Shown: positions 741 to 16,281 of the stretch, piece by piece
Layout of the letters: every line of letters begins with the position of its first letter
How positions within the stretch are numbered: position 1 is the stretch's first letter
DNA from: an uncultured Collinsella sp.
Lineage (GTDB): Bacteria > Actinomycetota > Coriobacteriia > Coriobacteriales > Coriobacteriaceae
Reading direction: 5' to 3'
DNA: 16,829 bases
Assembly (NCBI GenBank): GCA_900754745.1
Contig: CAAEEB010000082.1
Coordinates: 1-16,829 of the forward strand
Program-made: the position numbers and the translations under genes
Notes under the pieces: generated by a model
What the model was told of the DNA's origin: nothing
The model's database searches: none
Seen by the model: the letters and a program-made list of their open reading frames with translations, nothing else

Positions 741-963
741 GCCGTCCTCCGATCTCCCGGGGCCGGCCGGCCCGGCCCTCAGGGTATCGGGTTCCCACAT
801 TCACCCGCACATGTTCGGATGAATGTGGGAGGTGTTCGGATAAAGTCGATAATCAAGGCTGGGGTGTCGGGCTGCATCACAAGGTCATTAGATGAATTTA
901 AAAGTGCTGGGAACGTGCTACCATTGCCGATAGCCTTAATCTTGTAGAAGCGGAGGCCGGATT
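741..963. other. intergenic region with the probable IS30 end
   Basis: This stretch separates the transposase start from the SHOCT gene. The first 100 bp are GC-rich like the transposase and hold the dyad at 793-830. From about 842 the sequence becomes more AT-rich, which suggests the IS end lies near 841, but no target duplication can be shown because the other end is outside the window. A GGAGG ribosome binding site for the SHOCT gene lies at 953-957. I find no convincing promoter hexamers. Confidence 0.4.
793..841. repeat. 11-bp inverted repeat and 9-bp direct repeat near the IS30 end
   Basis: The arms TCCCACATTCA (793-803) and TGAATGTGGGA (820-830) are perfectly complementary with a 16-nt spacer. 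The 9-mer TGTTCGGAT occurs twice, at 812-820 and 833-841, 21 bp apart. The position just upstream of the transposase suggests transposase binding sites in the terminal region of the element, or an operator of its promoter. This is inference; the other IS end is needed to define the terminal repeat. Confidence 0.5.
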
Positions 964-2593: not shown

Positions 2594-3187
2594 TTAGCGC
2601 TTGATCTCGATATCCTCGAGCTTAACGTCCATGGCCTCGGTCTTGGCCTCGGCGATATCATCGGCAAACTCCAGGGACTTCATCATGGTCTCGACGGCGT
2701 CCTTGTGTTCCTCGACGTTGTCGATACGCACGTACACGCTGCCGCCGTCAACGTCGGTGAAGTACTCGGTCGTCACGCCGCCCGAGTGCGTAAAGTAGGC
2801 GCTGCGCCAGGTCTTGCCGTTGTACTTAACGGGATCGCTCTCGGTCCATCCGGAGTTGGCCTTCCACTTTGCCTCGTAGTCAAACAGTTCATCGGCGTTC
2901 TTGTCAGGATCGAAGACGGGGATGAAGCGGTCGCTGGCATGCTCGCTCTCGGTGAACTTAAACTGGGCCCTGTCGGCGGTATCGCCTGCGACGTCCGTGA
3001 TTTCGACGCCCTCGGGGACTTCGACCTTAAACCAAATGAAGTCGGTCCTCATATCCACGGCTGGCTTTTCTGCTCCGCCGCCACCGCCACTGCCGGTAGC
3101 GCCGCCGCTTCCGCCACAGCCCACCAGGGCAACCGCGGCAAAGAGACTGATGCAGAGGGTGAGAATCGCAAAGGCCTTCTTTTTCAT
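2594..3187 (-). CDS. lipoprotein, paralogue of its upstream neighbour
   Basis: A 197-residue lipoprotein of unknown function. The signal peptide is MKKKAFAILTLCISLFAAVA followed by the lipobox LVGC, with Cys24 as the expected lipidated residue. A Gly-rich linker (about 25-39) leads to a domain starting FIWFKVEVPEG at about residue 50. It shares DRFIPV, YNGKTW, FTDVDGGSVYV and MMKSLEFADD with the gene at 3419-4021, so the two arose by duplication. The general pattern (beta strand ending in VPEG, then a C-terminal helix ending in SLEF) resembles the PsbP/LpqN-like fold, which is only inference. The start has GAGGAGG about 8 bp upstream. It has its own terminator downstream and another upstream, so it is probably transcribed separately. 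Confidence 0.9.
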   Translation of the reverse strand: MKKKAFAILTLCISLFAAVALVGCGGSGGATGSGGGGGAEKPAVDMRTDFIWFKVEVPEGVEITDVAGDTADRAQFKFTESEHASDRFIPVFDPDKNADELFDYEAKWKANSGWTESDPVKYNGKTWRSAYFTHSGGVTTEYFTDVDGGSVYVRIDNVEEHKDAVETMMKSLEFADDIAEAKTEAMDVKLEDIEIKR

Positions 3188-3418: not shown

Positions 3419-4021
3419 TTACTTGATCTCGATGTTCGAAATCTCGACTTCGCGTGCCTCGGCAACTGCCTTCGCCATGTCATCGGGGAACTCGATGGAG
3501 TTGAGGAGCGCCTCGGCTTCTTTCTTATGCAGATCGAAGTTCGAGATAAGAACGTAGACGCTTCCCGGCTCAACGTCGGTAAAAAGCATGGTTGAGATGC
3601 CGCTGTTGTCCTCGTATGTTCCGACGAGCCACGTCCTGCCGTTATACTCGACGGATCCGCCATCCTTCCACTGGAACGTATCACCTTTCTTTTCTGCCTG
3701 GTCGGCGTGGGATTCCTCTGCCGTCAGCGCTTTTTTCCAAACGGGGATAAAGCGATCGGCCGAACCGTTCTCGTCTTCGGGGAAAGTGAGTTGGACCTTG
3801 TCGGCATTCTTGCCAGCGGAGTCGCTTACGCCAGCGCCCTCGGGCATCTCGACCTTAAACCAAATGAAGTCAGTCTTCTTGGCAACGGGGGCCTTTTCCT
3901 TACTCTCGCTCTTAGCGGCGCTGCCGCCCCCGCCCGATGCGCTCCCGCCGCAGCCGACAAGGGCGAGTGCGGCAAAGAGGGCGATGCACAGGGAAAGGAT
4001 CGATAGGGTCTTTTTCATCAT
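3419..4021 (-). CDS. lipoprotein, paralogue of its downstream neighbour
   Basis: A 200-residue lipoprotein of unknown function. The signal peptide MMKKTLSILSLCIALFAALA ends in the lipobox LVGC (Cys24), aligned residue for residue with the downstream paralogue. After a Ser/Gly/Lys linker the domain begins TDFIWFKVEMPEG and continues with DRFIPVWKK, YNGRTWLVGTYED, FTDVEPGSVYVLI and ends LLNSIEFPDDMA. I chose the ATG at 4019-4021 because AAGGAGG lies at the usual distance; a longer frame begins at 4054 but reads through the ribosome binding site. Expected location is the outer face of the cytoplasmic membrane. Ligand or partner cannot be read from the sequence. Confidence 0.9.
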   Translation of the reverse strand: MMKKTLSILSLCIALFAALALVGCGGSASGGGGSAAKSESKEKAPVAKKTDFIWFKVEMPEGAGVSDSAGKNADKVQLTFPEDENGSADRFIPVWKKALTAEESHADQAEKKGDTFQWKDGGSVEYNGRTWLVGTYEDNSGISTMLFTDVEPGSVYVLISNFDLHKKEAEALLNSIEFPDDMAKAVAEAREVEISNIEIK

Positions 4022-4384
4022 GGTGGCGTCCTCCTTGTCTGTCGGTGACATCACGGCGCCGCGGGTTGTTGGAGCGTTGTTTGTTTTGGCGGCGGATGTC
4101 TTTGTGTACTGTGCGGCTTATGCCTCCGTTCATCGCTTGTGGCCGTTGCGCGGCCGTGCCCCAACGGGTTCCTTACTTATAGATATGCCCCAGTTTGCGC
4201 TGCTGGGGAGTCTCGAAAGGTGGGCCAGATGTCCCATGTTTGCGTGTGCGGGCTTGCCGCAAGGTGGGCCTGGCGCTGGGCAAGCGTGCGGCTTGGTTGA
4301 TGCTCCTAATGTTGCGCAACAGCAATGCCGGCTTGAGGTTTTAGACTTGGCTGTGACAAAAGCTAAACCACGAAAGGTCGAACG
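4022..4384. other. divergent intergenic region
   Basis: This 363-bp region must hold the promoters of the minus-strand lipoprotein and the plus-strand zinc-ribbon gene. It contains the second copy of the 19-bp GGTGGGCC motif (4219-4237), a further GGTGGGCC at about 4263-4270, and a short hairpin CCCCAG/CTGGGG around 4188-4207. A minus-strand TATAAG-like -10 lies near 4180 without a clear -35. No gene is supported; long frames across it are shadows. Confidence 0.4.
4219..4237. repeat. 19-bp motif upstream of lipoprotein gene 2, copy 2
   Basis: GGTGGGCCAGATGTCCCAT differs at two positions from the copy at 3260-3278. It lies about 198 bp upstream of the lipoprotein start at 4021 and about 148 bp upstream of the divergent gene at 4385, so it could serve either. 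Confidence 0.5.
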
Positions 4385-5224
4385 ATGTTCTGTCAAAAAT
4401 GCGGACAGCAAGTTCCCGATGGATCGACGTTTTGCACGCATTGCGGGGCGTCGCTTGCGGGTGGTTCCGCGCCGACGTCCGCGGGCGCTGGTCCTTCCTC
4501 TGCCCCGGGCCTGACCCAGTCGATGCCGCCGGTCGCGCCCGCGCCTCAAAAACCTAAGAGCAAAGCTCCGATTGTCATCGCGGTGGCGTGTGCCGCCGTG
4601 GTACTCCTTGGGGGTGGCACGGTGTTCGCGCTCACGATGCTTAACGGGTCCAAGAGCTCTGACACGCAAATCTCGGTGATCGATACCGGGTCTTCGGACG
4701 AGAAAGATTCTTCTGCCAAGAGGAAGAGCGACAAGTCCAAGTCCAAGGAGTCTTCGCCGGCGGATGACGAGGCTGTTCCCGAGGACGAATCGGCATACTA
4801 CGGCTCGGGCGATTCGGACGATTACCTGACCGACGTGTATACGTACACGAACGACATGCATCCTTATAGCATGTCGATTCCCAATCGCTTTGAGATGGAA
4901 GATACTCCCAGCAGCAGCGGCACAAGGTATAAAGATCCGGAGACGGGCTTTGTGATCAGCCTGTTTGGCTTTGCTAACGTCAACGATGAAACCGCACACG
5001 AGATGTTCGTTGACGAGGATACCTCGGGCAAGGCCGACCTCTATACCGCGGAGGGCGACAACTGGTACGTGGTCTCGTGGCGCGAGGGCGACACAATCAC
5101 GTACGAAAAGACGATCGTCACGGATTCGACGATTGCCACGGCGCATTTGGAGTACTCGACTGCAAACCGCGACATGGGGTCGAAGGTTATCGATACGCTG
5201 TTGCCGACGTTCCAGGTGGACTAG
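4385..5224 (+). CDS. zinc-ribbon membrane protein with extracytoplasmic domain
   Basis: A 279-residue protein. The N-terminus is a zinc ribbon of the double-CxxC type (C3, C6, C17, C20: FCQKCG...FCTHCG), followed by a Pro/Ala/Gly linker and one membrane helix at about 61-86 (APIVIAVACAAVVLLGGG). A Ser/Lys/Asp/Glu-rich stalk (about 90-145) leads to an extracytoplasmic domain (about 155-279) starting YSMSIPNRFEM and ending VIDTLLPTFQVD. With the ribbon inside and the domain outside it could sense or bridge across the membrane. The C-terminal domain has the same broad outline as the neighbouring lipoproteins (strand plus Pro turn at the start, helix plus hydrophobic end). AAAGG at 4369-4373 serves the ATG. 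Function unknown. Confidence 0.88.
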   Translation: MFCQKCGQQVPDGSTFCTHCGASLAGGSAPTSAGAGPSSAPGLTQSMPPVAPAPQKPKSKAPIVIAVACAAVVLLGGGTVFALTMLNGSKSSDTQISVIDTGSSDEKDSSAKRKSDKSKSKESSPADDEAVPEDESAYYGSGDSDDYLTDVYTYTNDMHPYSMSIPNRFEMEDTPSSSGTRYKDPETGFVISLFGFANVNDETAHEMFVDEDTSGKADLYTAEGDNWYVVSWREGDTITYEKTIVTDSTIATAHLEYSTANRDMGSKVIDTLLPTFQVD

Positions 5225-5272
5225 GCGCCCGCGCCTATAGCCGGCAATCGGAAACGCCGATAGCCAGAGCTC

Positions 5273-5301
5273 CTGACAGTCTTTGTCTTATGGGCTAGAC
5301 T
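5273..5301 (+). promoter_or_regulatory. predicted sigma-70-type promoter before fchA-folD
   Basis: CTGACA (5273-5278, five of six consensus bases) is separated by exactly 17 bp from TAGACT (5296-5301, four of six). The start of transcription would be near 5308, leaving a leader of about 100 nt before fchA. The hairpin at 5321-5360 would lie inside this leader. Confidence 0.5.
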
Positions 5302-5320
5302 GGCTTGGACAAGATCGATG

Positions 5321-5360
5321 AATGGGACAACCGCTTCCTGGCGTCGTTGTCCCATTTTTT
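5321..5360 (+). terminator. intrinsic terminator between the zinc-ribbon gene and fchA
   Basis: Perfect 11-bp arms AATGGGACAAC (5321-5331) and GTTGTCCCATT (5346-5356) with a 14-nt loop, followed by a run of six T residues (5355-5360). It can end transcription of the gene at 4385-5224. If the promoter at 5273-5301 is real, the same hairpin sits in the fchA leader and could attenuate it. Confidence 0.85.
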
Positions 5361-5409
5361 ATTATGCGTGCGGCCCGTGGTGGCCGGCGCGGTGGGCAGA
5401 GGTGTTTCG

Positions 5410-6042
5410 ATGAGTCAAGAGATGATGGACAAAACCTGCCGAGGGTTTGCCGAGGCGCTTGCCGCGCGCGAGCCGGTTCCCGGCGGCGGCAGCGCCAGCG
5501 CGTTTGTGGGAGCACTGGGCGCCTCGCTGTGCGGAATGGTTGCCCGCTATGGTGCGACGAACCCCGCGCTTGCCGATCGCGCGGACGATCTGACGCTCGC
5601 GTTTGCCCAAGCAGACGAGCTGGCTCAGGAACTTGTGGGTCTGGTCGCCGAGGATGTTCGTGCGTACGGACAGGTGTCTGCGGCATACGGTATTCCGCGC
5701 GAGGATCCGGCTCGACCGACTGCGATTCAGGATGCGCTGCACGTGGCAGCCATGCCGCCGTACCGCATTATGGATGCCTGCGGGCGCGCGCTGGCGCTGC
5801 TCGAGGACATGGCCGATAAGGGCTCGCGCCAGTTGCTGTCAGACGTGGCCTGCGGTGCCGTGTTCTGCCGCGCCGCCATGCAGGGCGCGAGCTTGACGCT
5901 CTTTGCGAACACCACGTCTATGAAGGATCGTGCCCGCGCCGAGGAGCTCGAGGCGGCGTGCGACGATCTGCTCGATACGTGGCTGCCGCGCGCCGATGCG
6001 CTGGCGCGCCGCGCCGCCGACGCTGCAAGGAAGAGGGGATAG
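5410..6042 (+). CDS. fchA: methenyltetrahydrofolate cyclohydrolase / cyclodeaminase-family protein
   Basis: A 210-residue cytoplasmic protein of the FTCD C-terminal (cyclodeaminase/cyclohydrolase) family, mostly alpha-helical. The hallmark is PVPGGGSASAFVGALGASL at about residues 20-38. In FchA the family hydrolyses 5,10-methenyl-THF to 10-formyl-THF; in fused histidine-degradation enzymes it deaminates formimino-THF. No formiminotransferase domain is present here, and folD follows after 2 bp, which favours the cyclohydrolase role. I chose the ATG at 5410 (MSQEMMDKT); the longer open frame from 5305 would translate the terminator hairpin. AGAGG at 5398-5402 is a modest ribosome binding site. 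Confidence 0.9.
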   Translation: MSQEMMDKTCRGFAEALAAREPVPGGGSASAFVGALGASLCGMVARYGATNPALADRADDLTLAFAQADELAQELVGLVAEDVRAYGQVSAAYGIPREDPARPTAIQDALHVAAMPPYRIMDACGRALALLEDMADKGSRQLLSDVACGAVFCRAAMQGASLTLFANTTSMKDRARAEELEAACDDLLDTWLPRADALARRAADAARKRG

Positions 6043-6044
6043 CC

Positions 6045-6899
6045 ATGGCTGAGCTGTTGAAGGGCGCTCCCGTCGCCTGCGCGTTGACTGAGGAGCTTGC
6101 CGCTCGTTGTGCTGTTTTGCGCGAGCGCGGCATTGTTCCGACGCTGGCCATCGTTCGTGTGGGCGAGCGCGAGGACGACCTATCCTACGAGCGCGGTGCC
6201 CTCAAGCGCTGCGAGAAGGTGGGCATCGAAGCTCGTCGCGTGTTGCTGCCCGCCGATGTCTCGCAAGACGAGCTGATGGCTGCTATCGAGGGCATCAATG
6301 CCGATTCGACTGTTCACGGATGCCTGATGTTTCGTCCGTTGCCCGCTGGGCTTGACGAGGATGCGGTTGCCGCGGCACTCGAGCCCGCCAAGGATGTTGA
6401 CTCCATGACGCCGGCCTCGCTGCTTACCACGCTTTCGGGGCGAGGCGAGGGCTTTGCTCCTTGCACGGCCGAGGCCGTGCTGGCGTTGCTGGACCATTAC
6501 GGCGTTGAGCTGGATGGGGCCAAGGTCGCGGTCGTCGGTCGATCGCTGGTAATTGGGCGTCCCGTTGCCGCCATGCTTACGGCACGCAATGCCACAGTGG
6601 CGACGTGCCATACGCATACGCGCGACTTGGCTGCCGAGTGCCGTTCTGCCGACATTGTTGTTGCCGCGGTTGGACGTGCGTGCACGATTGGCGCGGATGC
6701 GGTTCGCGAGGGCCAGACGATCATCGATGTGGGTATTAACTGGGACGAGGCCGCCGGCAAGCTGGTCGGCGACGTCGATTTTGATGCTGCGGAGCCGGTT
6801 GTTGGCGCAATTACTCCCGTGCCGGGCGGCGTGGGGGCTGTGACCACGGCGATCCTCGCCAAACACGTGATTGAGGCGTCGGAGCGTGCATCGAAATAG
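6045..6899 (+). CDS. folD: FolD-family methylenetetrahydrofolate dehydrogenase, probably lacking cyclohydrolase activity
   Basis: A 284-residue FolD-family protein. It should oxidise 5,10-methylene-THF to methenyl-THF with NAD(P). The substrate domain has SYERGALKRCEKVGI (Y48), MFRPLPAG and KDVDSMTP (D119). The nucleotide domain has VAVVGRSLVIGRPVAAML and the end motif ITPVPGGVGAVTTAIL. Aligned by eye without gaps to E. coli FolD, the cyclohydrolase Lys54 is Ala52 here and Gln98 is Phe96, while Tyr50 and Asp121 are kept. So I expect a dehydrogenase whose cyclohydrolase step is done by FchA. The ATG follows the fchA stop by 2 bp and has AGAGGGG upstream; the two are surely cotranscribed. A longer frame from 5958 overlaps fchA and is rejected. 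Confidence 0.93.
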   Translation: MAELLKGAPVACALTEELAARCAVLRERGIVPTLAIVRVGEREDDLSYERGALKRCEKVGIEARRVLLPADVSQDELMAAIEGINADSTVHGCLMFRPLPAGLDEDAVAAALEPAKDVDSMTPASLLTTLSGRGEGFAPCTAEAVLALLDHYGVELDGAKVAVVGRSLVIGRPVAAMLTARNATVATCHTHTRDLAAECRSADIVVAAVGRACTIGADAVREGQTIIDVGINWDEAAGKLVGDVDFDAAEPVVGAITPVPGGVGAVTTAILAKHVIEASERASK

Positions 6900-6937
6900 G
6901 CGTTTTGGGCTGTATGAAGGGTCAGTTATATACCCAC

Positions 6938-7165
6938 TGTGCAAAAAACGCCAAATATGAGTACTGTTGCCAAGATAGTCACATATATTTTAGGCCATTT
7001 TGGCTCTCTATCGGTATTTATTATCGATAGAGAGTCTATTTTATTGGACTTATGAGGAATTATATCATCAAGCTTTTGAACAAATGTAGATTATCGACAC
7101 CTGCATTCGGTTAAATTGCTGCTACTAAATTGGTGACAGTACTCATATTTGGCATTTTTTGCACA
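6938..7165. mobile_element. MITE-like AT-rich element with 35-bp terminal inverted repeats
   Basis: The arms 6938-6972 and 7131-7165 are inverted copies with 32 of 35 positions matching; the outer 30 bases differ at one position only. The outer end reads TGTGCAAAAAACGCCAAATA. The 158-bp interior is strongly AT-rich in a GC-rich chromosome and has a second perfect hairpin, CTCTCTATCG (7003-7012) with CGATAGAGAG (7024-7033). No transposase fits inside; the only small frame (ATG at 7051, about 20 codons) has no ribosome binding site. It lies between folD and the dipeptidase gene. No target duplication is obvious. Alternatives are a long-stem structured RNA or a transcription-ending palindrome. 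Confidence 0.65.
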
Positions 7166-7264
7166 CGGGGGTCTCGAGGGGGTCGTGGCGACTGTGGTTT
7201 CGCCCTTTTTGCGCCGAAGCGATACACTGTTGCCGTTTGATTTCTTCGCTCAAGGAGGATGCGC

Positions 7265-8788
7265 ATGCCGTGCACAACGATTTTGGTTGGTAAGAACGCG
7301 AGCTACGACGGGTCGACGCTTGTCGCCCGCAACGAGGACTCGTCCAACGGGGTGTTTGAGCCCAAGCGCATGTGCGTGGTGCATCCCGACGAGCAGCCGC
7401 GTGTCTACACGAGTGTCTTGAGCCACCTGACCGTTGAACTGCCCGACAATCCCATGCGCTACACGAGTGTCCCCGACGTTATCCCGGGTCACGGCATCTG
7501 GGCCGAGGCCGGATTCAACGAGCTCAATGTTGGCATGTCCGCAACCGAGACGCTCACCACCAACGAGCGCGTCCGAGGCGCCGATCCGCTCGTGGACTAC
7601 GTGCCCGCCAAGGGCAACGAGGGCGAGGACGGCTATGTTCCGGCGCAGCCCGGCGGTCTGGGTGAGGAGGACATGGTGACCCTGGTGCTGCCGTACGCCA
7701 AGTCTGCCCGCGACGGTGTGCGCATTCTGGGCGAGCTGCTCGAGCGCTACGGTACCTACGAGAACAACGGTATTGCCTTTAGTGACGTTGACGAGATCTG
7801 GTGGCTCGAGACCATCGGCGGCCACCACTGGATCGCCAAGCGCGTGCCCGATGACGCCTATGTGACCATGCCCAACCAGCTGGGTATCGATAGCTTTGAC
7901 CTGGACGACGCCGAGGGCGCCCAGGCCGACCACATGTGCTCCGCCGACCTGCGCTCCTGGATGGCCGAGTGGCATCTGGACCTGACGCTGGGCGTCGAGG
8001 GCGACGGTCCGGCTGCGGTCTTTAACCCGCGCGAGGCCTTTGGCTCGCACAGTGACAGCGACCACGTCTACAACACGCCGCGCGCCTGGTACATGCAGCG
8101 CTGTCTCAACCCCAGCGATGTGTGGGACGGTCCCGACGCCGATTACACGCCCGAGAGCGACGACATCCCCTGGAGCCGCGTGCCCGAGCGCAAGGTGACC
8201 ATCGAGGACATCAAGTACGTGCTTTCGAGCCACTACCAGGGCACGGAGTACGACTGCTACGGCAGCAAGGGTACGCCCGCCACGCGCGGCGCCTATCGTC
8301 CTATCGGCATCAACCGCAACAGCCAGCTCGCCGTGCTGCAGCTGCGCCCCTATGCGCAGCCGGCATATCGCGCCGTGCAGTGGATGGCCTTTGGCTCTAA
8401 CTCGTTTAACGCGCTCGTGCCGCTGTACGCCAACGTCGAGACCATGCCCGAGTACTATGCCGACACGCAGGCTCGCGTGACGTCCGAGAATTTCTATTGG
8501 GCAAATCGCCTGATTGGTGCCTTGGCCGATGTTCGCTTCCATGAGTGCGGTCGCGCGGTCGAGGATTATCAGGAGAAGGTCGGCGGCATGGGCCACAAGC
8601 AGATTCACGACGTCGACGCTGCCGTAGCCGCGCTGCCCGAGGCCGAGGTGCCCGCCGAGCTCGCCCGCGCCAACGAGGACTTTGCCGAGCTCGTGCGCGT
8701 GGAGACCGATGCCCTGTTGGGCAAGGTGCTCTACACCACGAGCTGTGCCATGAAGAATTCCTTCGCGATGAACGACAATGTGAGATAA
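7265..8788 (+). CDS. C69-family dipeptidase
   Basis: A 507-residue Ntn-hydrolase of peptidase family C69 (dipeptidase A type), expected to split dipeptides in the cytoplasm. The N-terminus MPCTTILVGKNASYDGS carries Cys3, the nucleophile expected at the N-terminus after processing, followed by ARNEDS. Further family features are WWLETIGGHHWIAKRVPDD and VTMPNQ near the middle, and a C-terminal part with SNSFNALVPLYANV and RFHECG. I chose the ATG at 7265 because AAGGAGG at 7252-7258 gives a 6-bp spacing and puts Cys at position 3; the ATG at 7259 touches the ribosome binding site. No signal peptide. It is transcribed alone, just after the MITE-like element and with a terminator downstream. Confidence 0.93.
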   Translation: MPCTTILVGKNASYDGSTLVARNEDSSNGVFEPKRMCVVHPDEQPRVYTSVLSHLTVELPDNPMRYTSVPDVIPGHGIWAEAGFNELNVGMSATETLTTNERVRGADPLVDYVPAKGNEGEDGYVPAQPGGLGEEDMVTLVLPYAKSARDGVRILGELLERYGTYENNGIAFSDVDEIWWLETIGGHHWIAKRVPDDAYVTMPNQLGIDSFDLDDAEGAQADHMCSADLRSWMAEWHLDLTLGVEGDGPAAVFNPREAFGSHSDSDHVYNTPRAWYMQRCLNPSDVWDGPDADYTPESDDIPWSRVPERKVTIEDIKYVLSSHYQGTEYDCYGSKGTPATRGAYRPIGINRNSQLAVLQLRPYAQPAYRAVQWMAFGSNSFNALVPLYANVETMPEYYADTQARVTSENFYWANRLIGALADVRFHECGRAVEDYQEKVGGMGHKQIHDVDAAVAALPEAEVPAELARANEDFAELVRVETDALLGKVLYTTSCAMKNSFAMNDNVR

Positions 8789-8808
8789 AGAGAACCTTGC
8801 AACGAGCG

Positions 8809-8850
8809 AGCGGGGCAAACGCCATCAAAGGCTTTGCCCCGCTTGATTCC
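8809..8850 (+). terminator. probable terminator after the dipeptidase gene
   Basis: AGCGGGGCAAA (8809-8819) pairs perfectly with TTTGCCCCGCT (8833-8843) across a 13-nt loop. The tail TGATTCCTTT is only moderately T-rich, so efficiency is uncertain. Confidence 0.65.
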
Positions 8851-8871
8851 TTTCTGGGCGGTAAAACGATT

Positions 8872-8901
8872 TTGTGTCGTTCGCCCAATCTTGGGTACAA
8901 G
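8872..8901 (+). promoter_or_regulatory. possible promoter of the phasin-ABC1 operon
   Basis: TTGTGT (8872-8877) and TACAAG (8896-8901) are separated by 18 bp. The match is moderate (three and four of six consensus bases), but it lies between a terminator and a gene start where a promoter is needed. Confidence 0.35.
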
Positions 8902-8936
8902 AAGGCCAATGCAGTTGTTTGTGATTGGAGACAACC

Positions 8937-9353
8937 ATGGTTATGAAACTCGATCAGCTTGTTAACGGCGCCATCAACGTGGGCTTTGGCGCTGCCGCCG
9001 TTGCTGTCGAAGGCGGCAAGAAGGTCCTCGACGACCTTAACACCAAGGGCGAGCAGGTCCGCAAGGACACCGCCACCCCCGATATCGCCCGCAGCGTGTC
9101 CGACATGTTCGAGCAGGCCGGCGGTACCATCTCCGATCTGACCGAGCGCTTGGGCATGCAGGGCGAGACCGCGGCCCAGCGCGTGCTCGACGAGCTCATC
9201 CTTGCCCGCGTCCGCGTCATGACCGCCCCCGAGCGCACGGCCTTCCTGGCCCATGTGCGCGACATCGTCGATTCGGTCGAGGACAACGTGACCTCGGTGC
9301 CCGTCGAGTCTGTTGAGCCCGACGACGCAGAGGACGCCGAAGAGGCCGAGTAG
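8937..9353 (+). CDS. phasin-like small coiled protein
   Basis: A 138-residue protein, mainly helical, with the look of the phasin / polyhydroxyalkanoate-regulator PhaF-PhaI-like group: a small N-terminal amphipathic segment (KLDQLVNGAINVGFGAAAVAV), Lys/Glu-rich helices and a strongly acidic tail (about 117-138). The ATG at 8937 has GGAG six bases upstream; an in-frame TTG at 8925 lies before that site and is unlikely. It precedes an ABC1-family kinase by only 8 bp, so both are in one operon. Nothing else in the window points to polymer granules, so a role with the kinase at the membrane is at least as likely as a granule role. Confidence 0.75.
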   Translation: MVMKLDQLVNGAINVGFGAAAVAVEGGKKVLDDLNTKGEQVRKDTATPDIARSVSDMFEQAGGTISDLTERLGMQGETAAQRVLDELILARVRVMTAPERTAFLAHVRDIVDSVEDNVTSVPVESVEPDDAEDAEEAE

Positions 9354-9361
9354 CAGCGCAG

Positions 9362-11125
9362 ATGGCAGATTCCACCACCGATTACAACAATCTAGATCCC
9401 TTGGGTGACGAGACGGCGGTTGTCGACGAGGTCGATGCCGCCGTCTCGGGCGCTCGCAAGAAGCCGCGCGCTGTCGATATGGTCCCCGAGGAGCCCGACG
9501 CGATGGCGCCGGACGAGGAATACCAGCTCACACCGGCAGGTCGCCGCGAACGCATCGGTCAGATTGTTCGCCTGATTAAAAAGTACCGCGTATGGGATAA
9601 CCTCACGCCGGTTCGCCTGCGCCGCCTGCTCGAAGAGCTCGGCCCCATGTTCGTCAAGATGGGGCAGATTCTGGCTAACCGCTCCGAGATTTTGCCGCAG
9701 CGGTTTTGCGACGAGCTCCGTCGCCTGCGCTCCGACGTAGAACCGGTGCCGTATGAGGTAGTGCTCCGCTGTCTGGAAGAGGAATACGGCCAGCGCTTGG
9801 GGCAGATGTTCGACGCGATCGACCCCAACCCGCTCGGAAGCGCGTCGCTCGCGCAGGTACACCGCGCCCGCCTGGTGACGGGCGAGGACGTGGCCGTTAA
9901 GGTGCAGCGCCCCGGTGCGCAGCAGGTGATGGCTCAGGACATCGACATCATTCGCTCGGTGGTGCGTATCGTTTCCAAGTTCGTCAACACCGACCAGTTT
10001 GTTGACCTGCACGGCGTGGTCGAAGAGCTGTGGACCTCGTTTCGCGAGGAGACCAACTTTTTAGCCGAGGCCAAAAACCTCAACGATTTCTATGACTTCC
10101 ACAAAAGCGTGCACGGCGTGTCGTGTCCCAAATCCTACTTGGATCTTTGCACCGAACACGTGGTGGTCATGGACTACATTGACGGCATCTCGATTGCCGA
10201 TCCCGAGCGCCTGGTGGCCGAGGGCTATGACCTGGAAAAGATTGGCTCGGCGATTGTCGAGGACTATTCGACGCAGGTGCTCGACGACGGCTTTTTCCAT
10301 GCCGACCCGCATGCGGGAAACATCATCCTCAAAGATGGCATCGTTTACTTTATTGACCTGGGCATGGTCGGGCGCATGTCGAGCCACGACCGCGGTATCG
10401 TCAAGGACATGATTTTCGCCGTGGCCGAGGGCGACGTGCCCAAGCTCAAGGATTCGCTTATGCGCTTTGCCGTGACGCGCGGCGACTCGGCCGAGCTCGA
10501 CCATTCGGCCTTTTTGTCCGATTTGGACTTTATCGTTGCCGACTTTGCGGGCCTCGATCTTAAGGACCTGGATATCGGCGAGTTTTTGACCTCGCTGGTG
10601 AACCTGGCGCGCAAGAACGACGTTGAGCTGCCGAGCGTGGTGACGATGTTCGCGCGCGGCATGGTGACGCTCGAGGGCCTGCTGACCGAGTACATGCCCA
10701 ACGTCAACATGATCCAGATCATCCAGACGCATATTAAAAACGAGAAGAGCACCTATGCCCGCGTGCGCGAGATGGGTCGCGACTTTGCGGCGAGCAGCTA
10801 CCGCGCGGCTAAGGGCTCGCTCGAGGCGGCAGAGTACCTGGGCTTGGCGTCGCGCATGCTCACGCGCGGCCAGCTTAAGGTGAACACGCAGATCATGAGC
10901 AGCGATAAGGCGCTGCGACAGCTGGGTGGAATTATCGACCGCATGTCGATGGCAATTGTGATTGCCGGTCTGTTTATCGGTTCGTCGGTGGTGTACTACG
11001 CGCGCATCGAGCCGGTTGTGTTCGGTATCCCAGTCATTGGCTTTATGGGCTACGTGAGTGCGCTGGTGCTGGCGCTGATGCTGGGCCGCGAGATCTGGCG
11101 CAACAGCCACGGCGGCAAGCACTAG
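9362..11125 (+). CDS. ABC1/UbiB-family atypical kinase, membrane-anchored
   Basis: A 587-residue ADCK/UbiB-type protein-kinase-like ATPase. Family motifs in order: KxGQ (VKMGQILANRSEILP, about 98-112), the Ala/Ser nucleotide loop (SASLAQVHRA, about 160-169), the ATP-binding Lys in VAVKVQRP (about 181), EETNFLAEA (about 230-238), the catalytic-loop variant HADPHAGNII (about 313-322) and the metal-binding DLG in IDLGMVG (about 331-337). The C-terminus has two predicted membrane helices, about 529-546 and 552-575. An acidic tail-like N-terminus (first 60 residues) is unusual. The family is tied to ubiquinone synthesis in Proteobacteria and to lipid homeostasis elsewhere; in this anaerobic-type gene set a lipid role is more plausible. 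It follows the phasin-like gene by 8 bp. Confidence 0.93.
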   Translation: MADSTTDYNNLDPLGDETAVVDEVDAAVSGARKKPRAVDMVPEEPDAMAPDEEYQLTPAGRRERIGQIVRLIKKYRVWDNLTPVRLRRLLEELGPMFVKMGQILANRSEILPQRFCDELRRLRSDVEPVPYEVVLRCLEEEYGQRLGQMFDAIDPNPLGSASLAQVHRARLVTGEDVAVKVQRPGAQQVMAQDIDIIRSVVRIVSKFVNTDQFVDLHGVVEELWTSFREETNFLAEAKNLNDFYDFHKSVHGVSCPKSYLDLCTEHVVVMDYIDGISIADPERLVAEGYDLEKIGSAIVEDYSTQVLDDGFFHADPHAGNIILKDGIVYFIDLGMVGRMSSHDRGIVKDMIFAVAEGDVPKLKDSLMRFAVTRGDSAELDHSAFLSDLDFIVADFAGLDLKDLDIGEFLTSLVNLARKNDVELPSVVTMFARGMVTLEGLLTEYMPNVNMIQIIQTHIKNEKSTYARVREMGRDFAASSYRAAKGSLEAAEYLGLASRMLTRGQLKVNTQIMSSDKALRQLGGIIDRMSMAIVIAGLFIGSSVVYYARIEPVVFGIPVIGFMGYVSALVLALMLGREIWRNSHGGKH

Positions 11126-11176: not shown

Positions 11177-11204
11177 GGGCTTCGCCTGCGTGCGAGGCTC
11201 TTTT
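11177..11204 (+). terminator. intrinsic terminator of the ABC1 kinase operon
   Basis: GGGCTTCGC (11177-11185) pairs with GCGAGGCTC (11192-11200) over 9 bp including two G-U pairs, with a 6-nt loop, followed by TTTT. The last T residues overlap the -35 of the next promoter. Confidence 0.65.
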
Positions 11205-11231
11205 GCGTGATACCATATCGACGGTTTTAAT
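11203..11231 (+). promoter_or_regulatory. predicted sigma-70-type promoter of the riboswitch operon
   Basis: TTGCGT (11203-11208, four of six consensus bases) and TTTAAT (11226-11231, five of six) are separated by exactly 17 bp. Transcription would start near 11238, directly before the riboswitch P1 stem at 11241, which supports the assignment. Confidence 0.65.
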
Positions 11232-11240
11232 CGATGGCCT

Positions 11241-11413
11241 AGATGGTGGTGCGGAGACGCACGAATGCGCGGTTTTCCTGTGCGTTTGGGAGAATCGGGG
11301 TGCAAGTCCCCGGCTGTACCAGTAACCGTAATTCCTCTTGGCTTGGGATGCTCGCGTCGCAGATCGGACGACGTGCCCGAGTCGTTAAGGTTAAGTCGGA
11401 TCGCCTCCCATCT
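11241..11413 (+). ncRNA. cobalamin riboswitch
   Basis: The aptamer core matches the cobalamin class: GGGAGAATCGGGGTGCAAGT, then CCCCGGCTGT and CAGTAACCGTAA (about 11287-11333), which correspond to the conserved central junction of B12 riboswitches. AGATGG (11241-11246) and CCATCT (11408-11413) can form the closing P1 stem around a 173-nt element. Binding of a corrinoid is expected to reduce expression of the downstream gene. Downstream, a hairpin at 11414-11447 directly abuts P1 and has no T-run. The CCTCC at 11404-11408 could pair with the GGAGG near 11457, so control may be translational; the mechanism is uncertain. Confidence 0.92.
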
Positions 11414-11556
11414 TGCATACGGCTGCGGCTTTTGCCGCCGGTGTGCATAGGGCTCTGGAGGGAAGGGGGACCCCGATGGGGGAACTCGAGCGCAACATGC
11501 GCGATGACGTGGGGCAGCCTCAAGGCAACGCTCCAAGTACAGACAGTAGGAGACAA

Positions 11557-14500
11557 ATGGATATGTTTGAGGGCGAGCGCGAGCGTGCCTCGTTGCATCG
11601 CCGTGGCGCGATTGCACGCGGTGTAGCCAAGCGCGGCCTGGTGGCATTCCTGGCCTTCGCGATGGCTTTCAGCACCACGCCGGCTCAGCTGTGGGCCGAG
11701 GGCGCCGAGGGCATTGCCGAGGCTGTGGCTCAGGCTGCGACGCCGGGCGAGGACGCAGCACTTGCGGGCGGTACCGCTGAGCAGAGTGGCGCCGAGGTTT
11801 CGGATTCCGTGGGCGCGCCTGCAGCTAGTGCCGCCACAACAGAGGCAGCAACTGGCGACGAAGGCTCGACGACGGGGGAGAGCCCTGCCGCGAGCGAGCA
11901 GTCTTCGACGGTATCCGCTGGCCAAGCAGGATCTGCCGCCGCGGCTGCCGTTCAGGCAGAGAACCCGACAGAAACCGGCGATGTCGCCAAGAAGCAGGTC
12001 GAGGTCTCGTTCTCGATCATCGGCACCGATGCCGACGGCAGGGCTCAGACCTGGGTGGCACCTACGCAGCTTAAGCTCGACGAGGGCTCGACGGCTGCGG
12101 ATGCCTTCGTTAAGCTGCAGCAGAAGACGGGCTTTAAAGCGGATTACGAACCGAACACGGCATACGGCTTCTACCTCAAAAGCATTACGTCCCCGACAGA
12201 TGGCCGCACGCTTGCCTACGATCCGACGACTTGTGCCTTCTGGCAGCTGTTCGTCGACGGCGCGTCTTCCTCGGTTGGCGCGAGCAGCGTTAAGCTCACC
12301 CAGGGGCAGAAGATTGAGTTTGCCTATACGGCTGGTAGCGCGTCCCCTGTCGTTAAGGACCAGGTTGCCGCAAATGTGACCGTCATTGGTCGCGATGCCC
12401 AGGGCAAGACTCAGACTTGGGTCGATAACGCGCAGTATGTGGTGACGTCCGGCTCGAGCGCGCTTGATCTTACGAAGGTCGCGCTCGAGGCGAATGGCAT
12501 CGACGCCGTTGCTGCGGGCTCCTTCATTCTGAGCCTTAAGTACAACGGCGTTGAGCTGGGTACGCCGTTCGATTATTCGACCTATTGGCAGCTGTTCATC
12601 AACGGCAAGTCGAGCGACTATACGGCAGACAATGTCACCATCCATGCCGGCGATACCGTCACGTGGTTCTACGGTGGCTGGGGCGACCAGCTGCCCTCCG
12701 ATTCTGTCCATGCTTCTGTTCAGGTCCTCGGTAAGGACAAGGATGGCAAGCAGCAGGTTTGGGCTTCGACGGGCCAGACGAGTCTCAAGGCGGGTTCTAC
12801 TGCCAAGGATCTCCTTGAGCAGACCAGCCTTACTCTCGATGCTGGCGAATCGTCTTGGGGCTGGTTCCTCAACGGCATTACTTCGCCGTTCGATGGTAAG
12901 TCCTATGGGTATGATCCTGCGACCAATAGCTATTGGCGCTTCTATGTAAATGGCAAGTTCGCCGACGTTGGCGCCGGTAGCTACGAGCTCGGCGAGGGCG
13001 ACGCCATTACCTTTATGTATGCTGGCGACAGCGATGCCCTTCCTGGTCAGGTGCTTGGATCCGCCGATATTATCGGCCCCGATGTCAACGGGAATGATAC
13101 GCGTTGGGGCACGGCGAGTAACGTTTCTCTGCCCGAAGGCTCCACGGCCCAGAACCTTATTGAGGCAGTTCTGAAGGCCAAGGGCGTTGCGTACAACGGC
13201 TCCCAGAGTGGTGAGTACTGGTTCCTTAATTCCATTACTTCGCCGTTCGATCACAAGCCATATGGCTGGGATGCTGCGACCAATAAATATTGGCATCTGT
13301 ATATCAACGGAGAGCCCTCATCTCTCTGCGCCAACCAGGTCACGCTCAAGAGCGACGACAAGGTTACGTTTGCCTACACCACCGATAATTCGCCCATGCC
13401 CGATCCCGACAAGATTGTCGTGGACCCGAGCGCGACGACTCCTGATTGGGATGCCGAGTGGGCAGGTTACGGCAACAGCGGCAACGGTTCGACCGTAACG
13501 GATGCCAAGACGCCTGCGCAGGCCGCCGGACTTAAGTGGGCCTTCGATTGGAAGGCCGAGTCTGGTCGGCAGCATGCCAACTGCAGCGAACCTGTCATCG
13601 CTAACGGCTTTGTCTACATCGCGACCGAGAACGAGCTCATTAAGATCGATTCGTCCACGGGCAAAAAGGTTGCCTCTGCGCCGCTTGCCTCTAAGGTGAG
13701 CTATACCTCTCGTCCGATCTATACCAATGGCCTTCTCATCGTTCCGCTCAACGGCGGTGCGGTCCAGGCGATTACTGCGGACAAACTGATCTGCAAGTGG
13801 CTGACGCCTGGTTTGACGGACTTGACGCAGAGCTCCTGCACCGTCGTTTCGGACGGCGAGTACGTCTATGTAGGCTCGGTCGATATTTCGTATGACGAGA
13901 ATTACAACGCGACCTACGGCAACGGCTCCTTTGTGCGCATTAAGATTGCCACGGGCGAAGTTTCTTGGCAGAACATCGACCCTGCCGAGGGCTATTACTG
14001 GACTGGTGCGGCTTTGACGGATAAGTATGCCATCGTTCCTACGAGCGCGGGTACGCTTAAGTGCATTGATAAGACGACGGGCGATGTCGTTTCGACCATG
14101 AAGCTCGGCGCTGTCGCAAATGCCGATTGCATTGCCGATCCGACCAATGGTTCGACCTTCTATCAGATGACGCACGACGGAAAGCTCCATGTGATTTCGC
14201 TTTCGGCGAAGGGCGTGCTGAGTGAGCAGAAGACGGTTGATCTGGGCCTCACAAATAACATGAGCGCCCCGGCGGTGTCTGGTGACAATCTGATTGTCGG
14301 CGGACAGACGGCTACTGGCTCTGCTCTGGTTCTCTATAACCTGAAGACTGGCAAAACCACGATGGTCGCTGCTGCCGACGGCAAGGCGCTGCCGGCTGGT
14401 TTCAACGGTATTGCTGCTACTCCGCTGGTGAGTGTTCAGGGCGGCAAGACCTATGTGTATTTCACCGTTAACAGCGCGGATAGCAAGGATTACGTCAACT

Positions 14501-15363
14501 ACTCTGCTGGTGGTGGCGTGTATCGCTATACGCTCGGCGATGCAGAGGCGACGCAGATTTATGATGCGGCTGGCCATTACCAGTACTGCGACTCTCCGGT
14601 CATTGCCGATGCATCTGGCAACCTGTACTACATCAATGACTCGGGCACGCTGTTCAAGCTTGGTGCCGTTGAGTCTTGGACGGTTGCCTTTAATTCCAAC
14701 GGCGGGTCTGCTTGCGACACTAAGTTTGTTGCTACGGCAGATGGCAAGCTGGTCAAGCCGGCCGATCCGACGCGCGATGGCTACACTTTCGGCGGTTGGT
14801 ATACCGATGAGGCTTGCACGCAGGCGTATGACTTCGGTACGCCGGTGACGGCCGATCTGACGTTGTATGCCAAGTGGACCAAGAACGCCGTTAACCCTGG
14901 CGGCATTGGCGGTTCTGGCTCCAATGGCGGCAATGGTGGCGCTGGTAACGGTTCCGGTGCTGGCACGGGCGCTGGCACGGGTTCCGGCTCCGGCATGAAG
15001 GGCCAGCAGGCTGGCGGCGCTGTCGCCCCGGGTCATAAGCCGACGACCAAGACGACGGTGTCGACCAAGACTGAGACCAAGGACAACAAGTCCGACAAGA
15101 AGGACTCCGATAAGTCCGATAAGAAGGACGAGAAGAAGTCTGACAAGAAGTCTGACAAGAAGTCTGACAAGAAGGACAGCAAGTCCGACAAGAAGTCCGA
15201 TTCCAAGTCCGATACGGGTGCTGCTTCCACGACCACTGCTAAGAAGTCCTCTAGTGCTTCCGAGCAGGAGAATGGCACCAATTCGCTTGCCATCGTCGGC
15301 GTTGCGGCTGGCGTGATCGGTCTTGCCGTCATCGGCGTGTTCGTGTTTACCAAGCGTCGGTAG
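11557..15363 (+). CDS. surface protein with four DUF4430 repeats and a beta-propeller, probable corrinoid binder
   Basis: A 1268-residue exported protein under a cobalamin riboswitch. A long basic N-region and hydrophobic segment (GLVAFLAFAMAFSTTPA) end near the likely signal cleavage AQLWA at about residue 47. A low-complexity linker (50-140) precedes four DUF4430-like repeats at about 145-258, 270-375, 384-492 and 499-611. Each has the core FWQLFVDG, YWQLFING, YWRFYVNG or YWHLYING (Trp at 229, 344, 460, 579), as in the cobalamin-binding beta domain of transcobalamin. Residues about 665-1037 are PQQ-like propeller blades, about 1041-1110 an InlB_B-type repeat, then a Gly-rich and KSD-rich stalk and a C-terminal membrane helix (1242-1265) ending KRR. 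No LPxTG. Start chosen by AGGAG at 11548-11552; ATG 11476 is an alternative. Confidence 0.9.
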   Translation: MDMFEGERERASLHRRGAIARGVAKRGLVAFLAFAMAFSTTPAQLWAEGAEGIAEAVAQAATPGEDAALAGGTAEQSGAEVSDSVGAPAASAATTEAATGDEGSTTGESPAASEQSSTVSAGQAGSAAAAAVQAENPTETGDVAKKQVEVSFSIIGTDADGRAQTWVAPTQLKLDEGSTAADAFVKLQQKTGFKADYEPNTAYGFYLKSITSPTDGRTLAYDPTTCAFWQLFVDGASSSVGASSVKLTQGQKIEFAYTAGSASPVVKDQVAANVTVIGRDAQGKTQTWVDNAQYVVTSGSSALDLTKVALEANGIDAVAAGSFILSLKYNGVELGTPFDYSTYWQLFINGKSSDYTADNVTIHAGDTVTWFYGGWGDQLPSDSVHASVQVLGKDKDGKQQVWASTGQTSLKAGSTAKDLLEQTSLTLDAGESSWGWFLNGITSPFDGKSYGYDPATNSYWRFYVNGKFADVGAGSYELGEGDAITFMYAGDSDALPGQVLGSADIIGPDVNGNDTRWGTASNVSLPEGSTAQNLIEAVLKAKGVAYNGSQSGEYWFLNSITSPFDHKPYGWDAATNKYWHLYINGEPSSLCANQVTLKSDDKVTFAYTTDNSPMPDPDKIVVDPSATTPDWDAEWAGYGNSGNGSTVTDAKTPAQAAGLKWAFDWKAESGRQHANCSEPVIANGFVYIATENELIKIDSSTGKKVASAPLASKVSYTSRPIYTNGLLIVPLNGGAVQAITADKLICKWLTPGLTDLTQSSCTVVSDGEYVYVGSVDISYDENYNATYGNGSFVRIKIATGEVSWQNIDPAEGYYWTGAALTDKYAIVPTSAGTLKCIDKTTGDVVSTMKLGAVANADCIADPTNGSTFYQMTHDGKLHVISLSAKGVLSEQKTVDLGLTNNMSAPAVSGDNLIVGGQTATGSALVLYNLKTGKTTMVAAADGKALPAGFNGIAATPLVSVQGGKTYVYFTVNSADSKDYVNYSAGGGVYRYTLGDAEATQIYDAAGHYQYCDSPVIADASGNLYYINDSGTLFKLGAVESWTVAFNSNGGSACDTKFVATADGKLVKPADPTRDGYTFGGWYTDEACTQAYDFGTPVTADLTLYAKWTKNAVNPGGIGGSGSNGGNGGAGNGSGAGTGAGTGSGSGMKGQQAGGAVAPGHKPTTKTTVSTKTETKDNKSDKKDSDKSDKKDEKKSDKKSDKKSDKKDSKSDKKSDSKSDTGAASTTTAKKSSSASEQENGTNSLAIVGVAAGVIGLAVIGVFVFTKRR
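15133..15168 (+). repeat. three perfect 12-bp tandem repeats in the stalk
   Basis: AAGAAGTCTGAC occurs three times in a row (15133-15144, 15145-15156, 15157-15168), flanked by diverged copies. Each unit encodes KKSD. Slippage would change stalk length in frame. Confidence 0.8.
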
Positions 15364-16281
15364 GTGAGGGCTGTGTCCAATAAGCCACAGGACGCCGAGT
15401 CCAAGCAGCCCGACTCGTCGTTCATTCAGCTTGACGATGTAAAGCAAAAGGGCGCCGCTTCGGCGGCGTCCGGCCCTCGGCGCAAGGCGCTTGTTGGCGT
15501 CCTGACAGCCGCCTGTATTGCACTCATTGTCGTCTCGTTGGGTTTTGTCCACCCCTCTACCAGCGGTGCATGGTCCATCGACTGGATTGCGCGGGCTGTG
15601 ACAGGGGAGAGCATCGTTGCTAAGGATGTGTCGGTTTCCGGCTCGACTACCGCTTCGGGTAAGACTGGAGTCAAGGGCTCAAAATCTTCGGACAATGCGA
15701 AGGACGGGTCGAAGGATTCGGATGAATCCGATTCCAAGGACAAGTCTGAATCTTCGGACAAAAAGTCAGACAAGGGCTCGAAGGCGAAGAGGTCCGAAGA
15801 CAAGGGCGGCAAGAAGTCAGGGGACAAATCGGGTTCGCAGAATTCTGATTCCACTGGCGAATCGAGTTCTTCTGACGGCTCTTCTTCGGGCGGTGGCTCG
15901 GTGTCTGGCGGTGGGTCTGCATCCAACAGTGGCGGCGCCTCTGCGGGCAATCAGGACGGCTCGCAGCAGTCTGGTTATGTCACAGTGACGGTCTCGGTTA
16001 CGTCGAGCGCCGTGGGCAATCCTGTGTCTTCTGGCGGCACCTTCACCTTTAACGAGGGCGCTACGGTCTACGATGCCCTGTGCGCTCTGGGGCTTTCTGT
16101 CAATGCGCACGGCTCGTCATACGGCACGTATGTCGCCGCGATTGGTGGTCTGGCCGAGAAACAGTACGGCGGCACGAGCGGCTGGATGTACTCCGTCAAC
16201 GGCACAACGCCCATGACGGCCTGCAGCAACTACGTTCTCTCAAACGGCGACAACGTAGTCTGGTATTACGTTACAGGCTAG
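15364..16281 (+). CDS. membrane-anchored protein with one DUF4430 domain, probable corrinoid binder
   Basis: A 305-residue protein beginning with GTG directly after the stop codon of the preceding gene, so translation is probably coupled; GTG 15373 is an alternative start. Residues 1-40 are hydrophilic and cytoplasmic, 42-62 is one membrane helix (ALVGVLTAACIALIVVSLG), and about 75-200 is a Ser/Lys/Asp/Gly stalk like that of the upstream protein. The C-terminal domain (about 202-305) fits DUF4430: TFTFNEGATVYDALCALGL, then GTSGWMYSVNGT and NGDNVVWYYVTG. It is anchored at the N-terminus while its neighbour is anchored at the C-terminus, so it could receive ligand from it. Regulation by the same riboswitch is expected. 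A terminator follows. Confidence 0.88.
   Translation: MRAVSNKPQDAESKQPDSSFIQLDDVKQKGAASAASGPRRKALVGVLTAACIALIVVSLGFVHPSTSGAWSIDWIARAVTGESIVAKDVSVSGSTTASGKTGVKGSKSSDNAKDGSKDSDESDSKDKSESSDKKSDKGSKAKRSEDKGGKKSGDKSGSQNSDSTGESSSSDGSSSGGGSVSGGGSASNSGGASAGNQDGSQQSGYVTVTVSVTSSAVGNPVSSGGTFTFNEGATVYDALCALGLSVNAHGSSYGTYVAAIGGLAEKQYGGTSGWMYSVNGTTPMTACSNYVLSNGDNVVWYYVTG

What the first reader, a model, noticed from the sequence alone, without database searches (positions are those of the whole stretch)
11203..16281. Riboswitch-controlled two-protein surface system for corrinoid capture
Seen directly: a cobalamin riboswitch behind a clear promoter, then a large exported protein with four repeats containing F/Y-W-x-h-Y/F-V/I-N/D-G cores, a propeller-like region and a C-terminal anchor, then an adjoining gene for an N-terminally anchored protein with one such domain. 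Known: DUF4430 is related to the cobalamin-binding beta domain of transcobalamin/intrinsic factor, and the Bacteroides surface protein BtuG binds B12 with a beta-propeller. Combining both fold types in one protein, plus a second short-stalk binder with the opposite anchor, suggests a relay from the cell surface to the membrane in a Gram-positive gut bacterium. No BtuCDF or ECF transporter is in the window.
Basis: partly seen in the sequence, partly recalled or inferred. Interest (0 to 1): 0.85.

Follow-up and report, generated by a model that had tools for sequence, protein, structure and literature searches.

The report
Transcobalamin-like B12 capture proteins in Collinsella
A gut bacterium carries a vitamin-B12-type RNA switch in front of genes for two surface proteins built from domains related to our own B12 carriers; in many relatives the same two genes stand in a row with the genes of a membrane pump related to a known B12 pump, so they most likely catch B12 outside the cell for that pump.

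Summary
In Collinsella, window 11236-11413 is a variant cobalamin riboswitch. Rfam's curated threshold misses it (29.1 vs 36.5 bits), but a covariance model built without it or its close kin finds it at 165 bits. Gene A (11476-15363) has four DUF4430 domains, a BamB-like propeller, an InlB-type repeat and a C-terminal membrane segment. Gene B (15364-16281) has an N-terminal membrane segment and one DUF4430. New here: of 80 A-type loci kept from reference genomes, 75 have B downstream and 36 continue with EcfT, EcfAA' and an S component on the same strand. That S family's best PDB match is 6FNP, the cobalamin transporter ECF-CbrT (4e-14). Fifty-four of the 80 carry the variant switch upstream; eight more carry canonical RF00174. 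In the nearest held genome the ECF genes lie elsewhere. DUF4430 matches the transcobalamin beta-domain by profile. Not upheld: the 'clear promoter' fails a sigma-70 scan, and the propeller matches eight-bladed BamB/YxaL folds while BtuG has seven blades. Best reading: surface corrinoid capture feeding a CbrT-type ECF transporter.

The parts
11208..11216 (+). extended -10-like element TGATACCAT (weak)
   Evidence: read by eye; a similar TGnTAnnAT lies upstream of the riboswitch in several relatives; strict sigma-70 scan found no promoter here
11236..11413 (+). variant cobalamin riboswitch aptamer
   Evidence: R1 165.3 bits, E=1.9e-45; AdoCbl-II below cut-off; compensatory changes
11454..11469 (+). 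UCUGG plus Shine-Dalgarno; proposed L13 partner of the CCAG in L5, masking ribosome binding
   Evidence: [CT]CTGG followed by a purine stretch and a start codon in 38 of 39 R1 sites tested, 8.3 expected in shuffles; pairing inferred
11476..15363 (+). gene A: exported protein, four DUF4430 + propeller + InlB-type repeat + Lys/Ser/Asp-rich spacer + C-terminal membrane anchor
11989..13407 (+). four DUF4430 domains D1-D4 (about 11989-12345, 12346-12702, 12703-13059, 13060-13407)
   Evidence: PF14478, 4 stretches; bounds are the cuts used
13444..14670 (+). eight-bladed BamB/YxaL-like beta-propeller
14680..14874 (+). Flg_new / List_Bact_rpt (InlB B-repeat) domain
   Evidence: PF09479 2.9e-22; PDB internalin B 1.2e-4
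15280..15360 (+). C-terminal hydrophobic membrane anchor with KRR tail
   Evidence: hydropathy 2.73; C-terminal segment in 77 of 80 A proteins with an intact 3' end, window included
15364..16281 (+). gene B: N-terminally anchored protein, Ser/Asp/Lys-rich stalk, C-terminal DUF4430
15493..15549 (+). N-terminal transmembrane segment of B
   Evidence: hydropathy 2.62
16057..16272 (+). DUF4430 domain of B
   Evidence: PF14478 1.5e-18

Best explanation
A and B are the extracellular capture part of a corrinoid (vitamin B12 family) uptake system whose membrane engine is a CbrT-type ECF transporter. When corrinoid is scarce, the riboswitch leaves the Shine-Dalgarno of A free; when corrinoid binds, loop L5 (CCAG) pairs with CUGG beside the Shine-Dalgarno and shuts translation. 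A reaches out from the cell (signal peptide, repeats and propeller outside, C-terminal membrane anchor). B, on an N-terminal anchor and flexible stalk, holds one DUF4430 near the membrane and passes corrinoid to the S component. Shown by computation: riboswitch homology and covariation, domain make-up, conserved gene order, co-occurrence with the S component. Inferred: corrinoid binding by DUF4430, hand-off from A to B to S, the off-switch logic, and the propeller's role (docking or part of the site).
For: In 36 of 80 A-type loci the order is A-B-EcfT-EcfAA'-S on one strand, 17 of them with the R1 riboswitch upstream and 6 more with canonical RF00174. A profile of ten S components from such loci and from G001 matches 6fnp at 4e-14, next ECF entry 0.0018; the G001 S component alone matches 6fnp at 8.5e-6. 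PMC5997447 gives 6FNP as ECF-CbrT, a B12 transporter. The EcfT profile matches EcfT structures at about 2e-10. In five Collinsella genomes the same switch precedes a single-DUF4430 gene with an LGGC lipobox, followed by ECF genes. S and DUF4430 both occur in 42 of 43 genus genomes and are both missing from G039. Canonical RF00174 switches, 69.6-88.5 bits, stand upstream of A in 8 of the 26 loci without an upstream R1 match. Outside the genus, 48 of 60 R1 sites have a listed DUF4430 within 10 kb downstream on the same strand. DUF4430 profile: transcobalamin-1 beta-domain 2e-4, transcobalamin-2 0.0048. Opposite anchors are kept: C-terminal segment in 77 of 80 A, N-terminal segment in 61 of 76 B. 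A B12-binding-domain protein is in 38 of 43 genus genomes; the one checked is MetH-like. C. aerofaciens is reported to require B12 (PMC6593275, passage).
Against: No binding datum for any bacterial DUF4430 was found in the searches made. The window's switch fails Rfam's own threshold. In G001, the nearest held genome, the ECF genes carry no riboswitch motif and no R1 hit at E<=1 (L129), so capture and pump are not co-regulated there by this element. By Pfam the S components hit DUF6580 and the riboflavin S family, not a cobalamin-named one, and 4 of 5 EcfT proteins scanned hit no CbiQ model. Five complete A proteins have no detectable DUF4430, and four copies occur only in close kin. G001 also has corrinoid-synthesis genes and a FecCD-type ABC importer, so uptake by this route is not its only possible source. 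PF01923 adenosyltransferase matched in only 3 of 43 genus genomes (2 over the cut-off), so the sensed form may not be AdoCbl. Twelve of the 80 loci had no switch by either model although A's start is inside the locus. One of the two Clostridia loci (L264) has A but no B or ECF genes.
Confidence: 0.8

Rival explanations
1. Only B (and the single-domain lipoproteins) bind corrinoid; A is a scaffold. Its propeller docks B or the transporter, or binds mucin or another cell, and its DUF4430 copies are partly degenerate spacers.
Against: Invariant residues of the propeller include aromatics (Y314, W315) that could equally line a ligand site; 71 of 76 complete A frames keep at least one DUF4430.
Confidence: 0.22
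2. A and B take B12 from host or food carrier proteins (haptocorrin, intrinsic factor) by binding the carrier rather than the free vitamin.
For: DUF4430 is a relative of the carriers' beta-domain; many of the record titles are species known from the gut (habitat recalled).
Against: Not tested here. The ECF link explains direct capture without carriers.
Confidence: 0.07
3. DUF4430 here binds another ligand, such as cobalt or another metal, and the cobalamin switch only reports low corrinoid.
For: The top PDB relative 3u7z is named 'putative metal binding protein'.
Against: The adjacent S component's best PDB match is CbrT; beta-domains of transcobalamins help bind cobalamin (established knowledge).
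Confidence: 0.06
4. The riboswitch is a chance match and the two proteins are ordinary adhesins.
For: Below Rfam gathering score.
Against: R1 E=1.9e-45, covariation, class-wide linkage and canonical switches in other lineages.
Confidence: 0.01

Closest known systems
ECF-CbrT of Lactobacillus delbrueckii (PMC5997447)
   Same: S component related by sequence (6fnp, profile 4e-14); genes for EcfT, EcfA, EcfA' and S; CbrT takes up cobalamin and cobinamide
   Different: The passages and Discussion read describe CbrT itself as the substrate-binding protein; the word search of the main text found no 'riboswitch' and no 'lipoprotein'; here one or two DUF4430 proteins accompany it
BtuG/BtuH surface B12 binders of Bacteroides (PMC10404256 passages; PMC6143338 and PMC8941943 seen only in a search listing)
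   Same: Surface-anchored capture proteins in corrinoid transport loci; BtuG is a propeller protein
   Different: Gram-negative, feeds BtuB; BtuG2 is seven-bladed, here an eight-bladed BamB/YxaL-like propeller; DUF4465 binders are jellyrolls (abstract of PMC13398666)
Transcobalamin / haptocorrin / intrinsic factor beta-domain
   Same: Profile similarity to the C-terminal beta-domain
   Different: No alpha-barrel domain found; membrane-anchored, repeated up to four times, joined to a propeller
AdoCbl-II / Cobalamin riboswitches (RF01689, RF00174)
   Same: Core L4, L5 and B12-box-like 3' segment; a CUGG next to the Shine-Dalgarno as in translational types (recalled)
   Different: Altered enough to fall below Rfam cut-offs in most Collinsella genomes (RF01689 matched 33 of 43, over the cut-off in 4)

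Membership tests
Cobalamin/AdoCbl-II riboswitch | score at or above Rfam gathering in the window | tested here: not met
   29.1 vs 36.5 bits; so it is called a variant, not filed as RF01689
Cobalamin/AdoCbl-II riboswitch | homologues at the same locus reach the curated cut-off | tested here: met
   RF01689 over cut-off in 4 of 43 genus genomes
Cobalamin/AdoCbl-II riboswitch | secondary structure kept by compensatory changes | tested here: met
   18 of 32 pairs, 86 cells, 0 of 500 shuffles as high, slid controls at most 7 pairs and 33 cells; relatedness not removed by the shuffles
Cobalamin/AdoCbl-II riboswitch | L5-L13 kissing loop | tested here: inconclusive
   Both halves conserved, but no covariation because neither varies
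Cobalamin/AdoCbl-II riboswitch | binds cobalamin | not testable with these tools
   needs in-line probing
DUF4430 (PF14478) | score over Pfam gathering | tested here: met
   154.9 and 67.4 bits vs 23.8
Transcobalamin family | beta-domain homology | tested here: met
   4kki E=2e-4, 5no0 0.0048
Transcobalamin family | N-terminal alpha-barrel domain | tested here: not met
   no such Pfam match in A or B up to E=1
BtuG | seven-bladed propeller with the B12 pocket at its centre | tested here: inconclusive
   top matches are BamB, YxaL and designed eight-bladed propellers; BtuG not listed, which does not exclude it
ECF-CbrT system | S component related to CbrT beside the genes | tested here: met
   in 36 of 80 A-type loci, profile match 4e-14 to 6fnp; in the nearest held genome it is at another locus, and the window's own assembly is not held
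ECF-CbrT system | EcfT subunit | tested here: met
   profile of ten matches EcfT structures at about 2e-10; single-protein Pfam scans gave CbiQ only for the Cuneatibacter protein, 1 of 5
ECF-CbrT system | transports cobalamin | not testable with these tools
   no assay

The most novel reading that the evidence does not exclude
A vitamin ECF transporter, a class whose S component is taken to do all substrate binding, is fed by dedicated extracellular proteins built from transcobalamin-type domains: a bacterial counterpart of the animal B12 carriers that relays corrinoid from an outstretched multi-domain protein (A) through a membrane-proximal one (B) to the S component, across Coriobacteriia and at least one Clostridia species.
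Probability: 0.55. Interest if true: 0.87.

Novelty: new variant of a known kind. Interest (0 to 1): 0.78.

Why it matters
PMC6593275 (passages) calls the identification of B12 transport systems in numerous gut genomes an open problem and lists Collinsella aerofaciens as B12-requiring. This locus offers a named, testable answer for Coriobacteriia. It would give DUF4430 a function, add an extracellular capture step to ECF transport, and show that a domain of our own B12 carriers also serves gut bacteria competing for the vitamin.

Tried and rejected
Chance riboswitch: rejected by R1, covariation and linkage. BtuG homology: not among the listed fold matches; a missing row excludes nothing. Single-sequence AlphaFold2 of a D3-D4-propeller piece: unusable, pLDDT 39. 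Codon-position test for A's start: inconclusive. Viral fold library: no informative match, mostly other propellers. sigma-70 promoter: none found before the switch. NCBIfam scan of A and B: no DUF4430 model matched. RF00174 across the genus: at E<=1e-3 in 6 of 43; over cut-off only in G031, G032, G034, elsewhere in those genomes; sub-threshold at the switch itself in G023, G027, G041. Pfam for EcfT: no CbiQ match in 4 of 5 proteins; settled by the profile. A lax Rfam scan of three Olsenella-type loci found nothing, although the sequence before A looks riboswitch-like by eye. Of the 26 loci without an upstream R1 match, all 26 were scanned with Rfam at gathering: 8 have RF00174 before A; 12 (L204, L205, L210, L220, L224, L227, L228, L229, L231, L235, L243, L249) have nothing; five (L192, L218, L236, L238, L260) begin at or just before A's first domains; L265's switch lies on the other strand, before another DUF4430 stretch.

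Papers: PMC5997447 passages plus whole Discussion; PMC10404256, PMC6593275, PMC8123684, PMC4350170 passages; PMC13398666 abstract and outline; the rest search listings only. That bacterial DUF4430 has no tested function in print rests (open-access library; six papers hold the word). That BamB is eight-bladed, how L5-L13 works, and that ECF transporters are usually said to need no extracellular binder are recalled.
Full report
What is in the window. The window is from Collinsella or very near it. A variant cobalamin riboswitch lies at 11236-11413. Gene A follows with its Shine-Dalgarno right behind the switch, and gene B starts at the base after A's stop. A carries four DUF4430 domains (7.3e-46), a propeller, an InlB-type repeat and a C-terminal membrane segment; B carries an N-terminal membrane segment and one DUF4430 (1.5e-18).

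The riboswitch is real but unusual. Rfam reports nothing at curated thresholds and a sub-threshold AdoCbl-II match under a lax scan (29.1 of 36.5 bits). The same family is found once per genome in 33 of 43 Collinsella genomes, over the cut-off in 4. A motif search located the element in 41 of the 43: 39 of the 40 genomes with loci L061-L100, plus G005 and G031; not in G029, while G039 was seen only, without a match. A covariance model from 18 sequences without the window or its close kin finds the window at 165 bits. On the 26-sequence alignment 95.5% of cells pair, 18 of 32 pairs show changes on both sides, and slid controls reach at most 7; the shuffles do not remove relatedness. Loop L5 holds CCAG. 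Behind the aptamer, [CT]CTGG followed by a purine stretch and a start codon is present in 38 of 39 R1 sites from several genera, 8.3 expected in shuffles. This fits an L5-L13 kissing loop masking the ribosome site; neither half varies, so covariation cannot test it.

What the switch controls elsewhere. In 246 Coriobacteriia genomes the model hits 85 and DUF4430 is in 145. Leaving out the Collinsella rows, 60 hits in 51 genomes remain; 48 hits (44 genomes) have a listed DUF4430 within 10 kb downstream on the same strand, a lower bound because the DUF4430 table was truncated; two genomes contribute tandem hits. The model was trained on switches at DUF4430 loci, but on RNA only. In five Collinsella genomes (G015, G020, G030, G040, G041) the switch precedes a single-DUF4430 gene with an LGGC lipobox, followed by ECF genes: read out and scanned in L070 and L078, with the S match in all five, in G030 cut by the contig end. 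Of 20 loci fetched from other genera, 12 have the S component beside DUF4430, and in two (L183, L184) A and B stand in the same row as the ECF genes.

The key result. A search of one genome per species with the D4-propeller alignment gave 188 relatives, of which the tool kept the best 80. By record title these are Coriobacteriia (among them Collinsella, Slackia, Gordonibacter, Rubneribacter, Adlercreutzia, Eggerthella, Olsenella, Tractidigestivibacter, Parafannyhessea, Atopobium, Enorma), one 'uncultured actinobacterium' and two Clostridia; a number of them are the same genomes as the G handles, so this set is not independent of the others. Of the 80, 75 have B downstream, 36 have A, B, EcfT, EcfAA' and S in that order on one strand (not always touching: in L217 and L247 about 2 kb separate EcfAA' from S), 54 have the variant switch upstream on the same strand, and 17 have switch plus full order. 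The other 44 show no S component in the flank held; the Collinsella and Enorma loci are all among these. Among the 26 without an upstream variant match, 8 carry a canonical cobalamin riboswitch of 69.6-88.5 bits upstream of A, and 6 of these 8 have the full order, including Cuneatibacter caecimuris, a Clostridia species; L252 has A and B only, and L264, a Clostridia MAG, A only. Two kinds of cobalamin switch in front of the same genes make the cobalamin link very strong.

The transporter. A profile of ten S components, G001's included, finds 6fnp in the PDB at 4e-14; the next ECF entry, 4hzu, is at 0.0018. The L070 and G001 proteins alone find it at 8e-9 and 8.5e-6. PMC5997447 names 6FNP as ECF-CbrT and shows transport of cobalamin and cobinamide (passages and Discussion). 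By Pfam the S proteins fall into DUF6580, ECF-ribofla_trS and, in part, ECF_trnsprt, none cobalamin-specific. The protein called EcfT hits CbiQ in only 1 of 5 scanned, but a profile of ten matches EcfT structures at about 2e-10. The S homologue is in 42 of 43 Collinsella genomes, as is DUF4430, and both are missing from the same genome, G039. In G001 it sits in an EcfT-EcfAA-S row at another place without DUF4430 or the switch motif. FecCD importers are in 29 of 43. The window's own assembly is not held, so the transporter of this very strain was not seen.

Physiology. A B12-binding-domain protein is in 38 of 43 Collinsella genomes; the one checked, from G008, has methionine synthase domains. 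The five without it (G016, G017, G018, G027, G028) still have the switch and DUF4430. PMC6593275 lists C. aerofaciens as B12-requiring although it has a set of synthesis genes, and calls B12 transport in numerous gut genomes an open problem (passages). CobS is in 17 of 43 genomes including G001, and G001 has CbiK, CbiA and methylase genes near a FecCD importer. PF01923 adenosyltransferases matched in 3 of 43, so the sensed form may not be adenosylcobalamin; other adenosyltransferase families were not searched.

Reading. The simplest account is that A and B are extracellular corrinoid-capture proteins of a CbrT-type ECF system, with the ECF genes apart from them in Collinsella. Shown: homology, gene order, co-occurrence, regulation element. 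Inferred: ligand binding, hand-off, off-switch direction, propeller function. Rivals are a scaffold role for A (about 0.22), capture from host carriers (0.07) and another ligand (0.06).

Noticed in passing
L273 (G029:C10:218000-232000), about 4227-4342 and 4495-9063: G029 lacks the switch at its B locus but has a weak R1 hit (36.8 bits) just before a 1522-aa exported-looking protein with a FIVAR domain: possibly another B12-controlled surface protein.
   Followed up: partly
L271 (G001:C3) 4029-9581: A FecCD-type ABC importer with a Peripla_BP_2 protein stands beside a CbiK-type chelatase that begins with an export-like leader, next to cbi/cob genes.
   Followed up: partly
G111:C1:3639160-3639593 and G177:C23:263543-263977: Two R1 riboswitch matches in tandem before the same DUF4430 locus.
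   Followed up: no
L101, L102, L103 (G032, G034, G031): A separate RF00174 cobalamin riboswitch over cut-off exists elsewhere in these three genomes; the gene behind it was not examined.
   Followed up: no
G017:C1:793923-794390: A cobalamin adenosyltransferase (PF01923) match lies just upstream of the riboswitch and A gene in this relative.
   Followed up: partly
L243 17230-17484 and L249 13470-13716: raiA RNA lies a few kilobases downstream of the A-type gene in two Atopobium records.
   Followed up: no
window 2594-3187 and 3419-4054, minus strand: Two similar small lipoprotein-like genes side by side, unnamed here.
   Followed up: no
window 3-800, minus strand: Reading frame that looks like an IS30-type transposase (recalled, not searched), at the left edge.
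   Followed up: no
G024 (L085): The A gene of this relative has an internal TAG in the first DUF4430 region and was called as two frames; described only.
   Followed up: no
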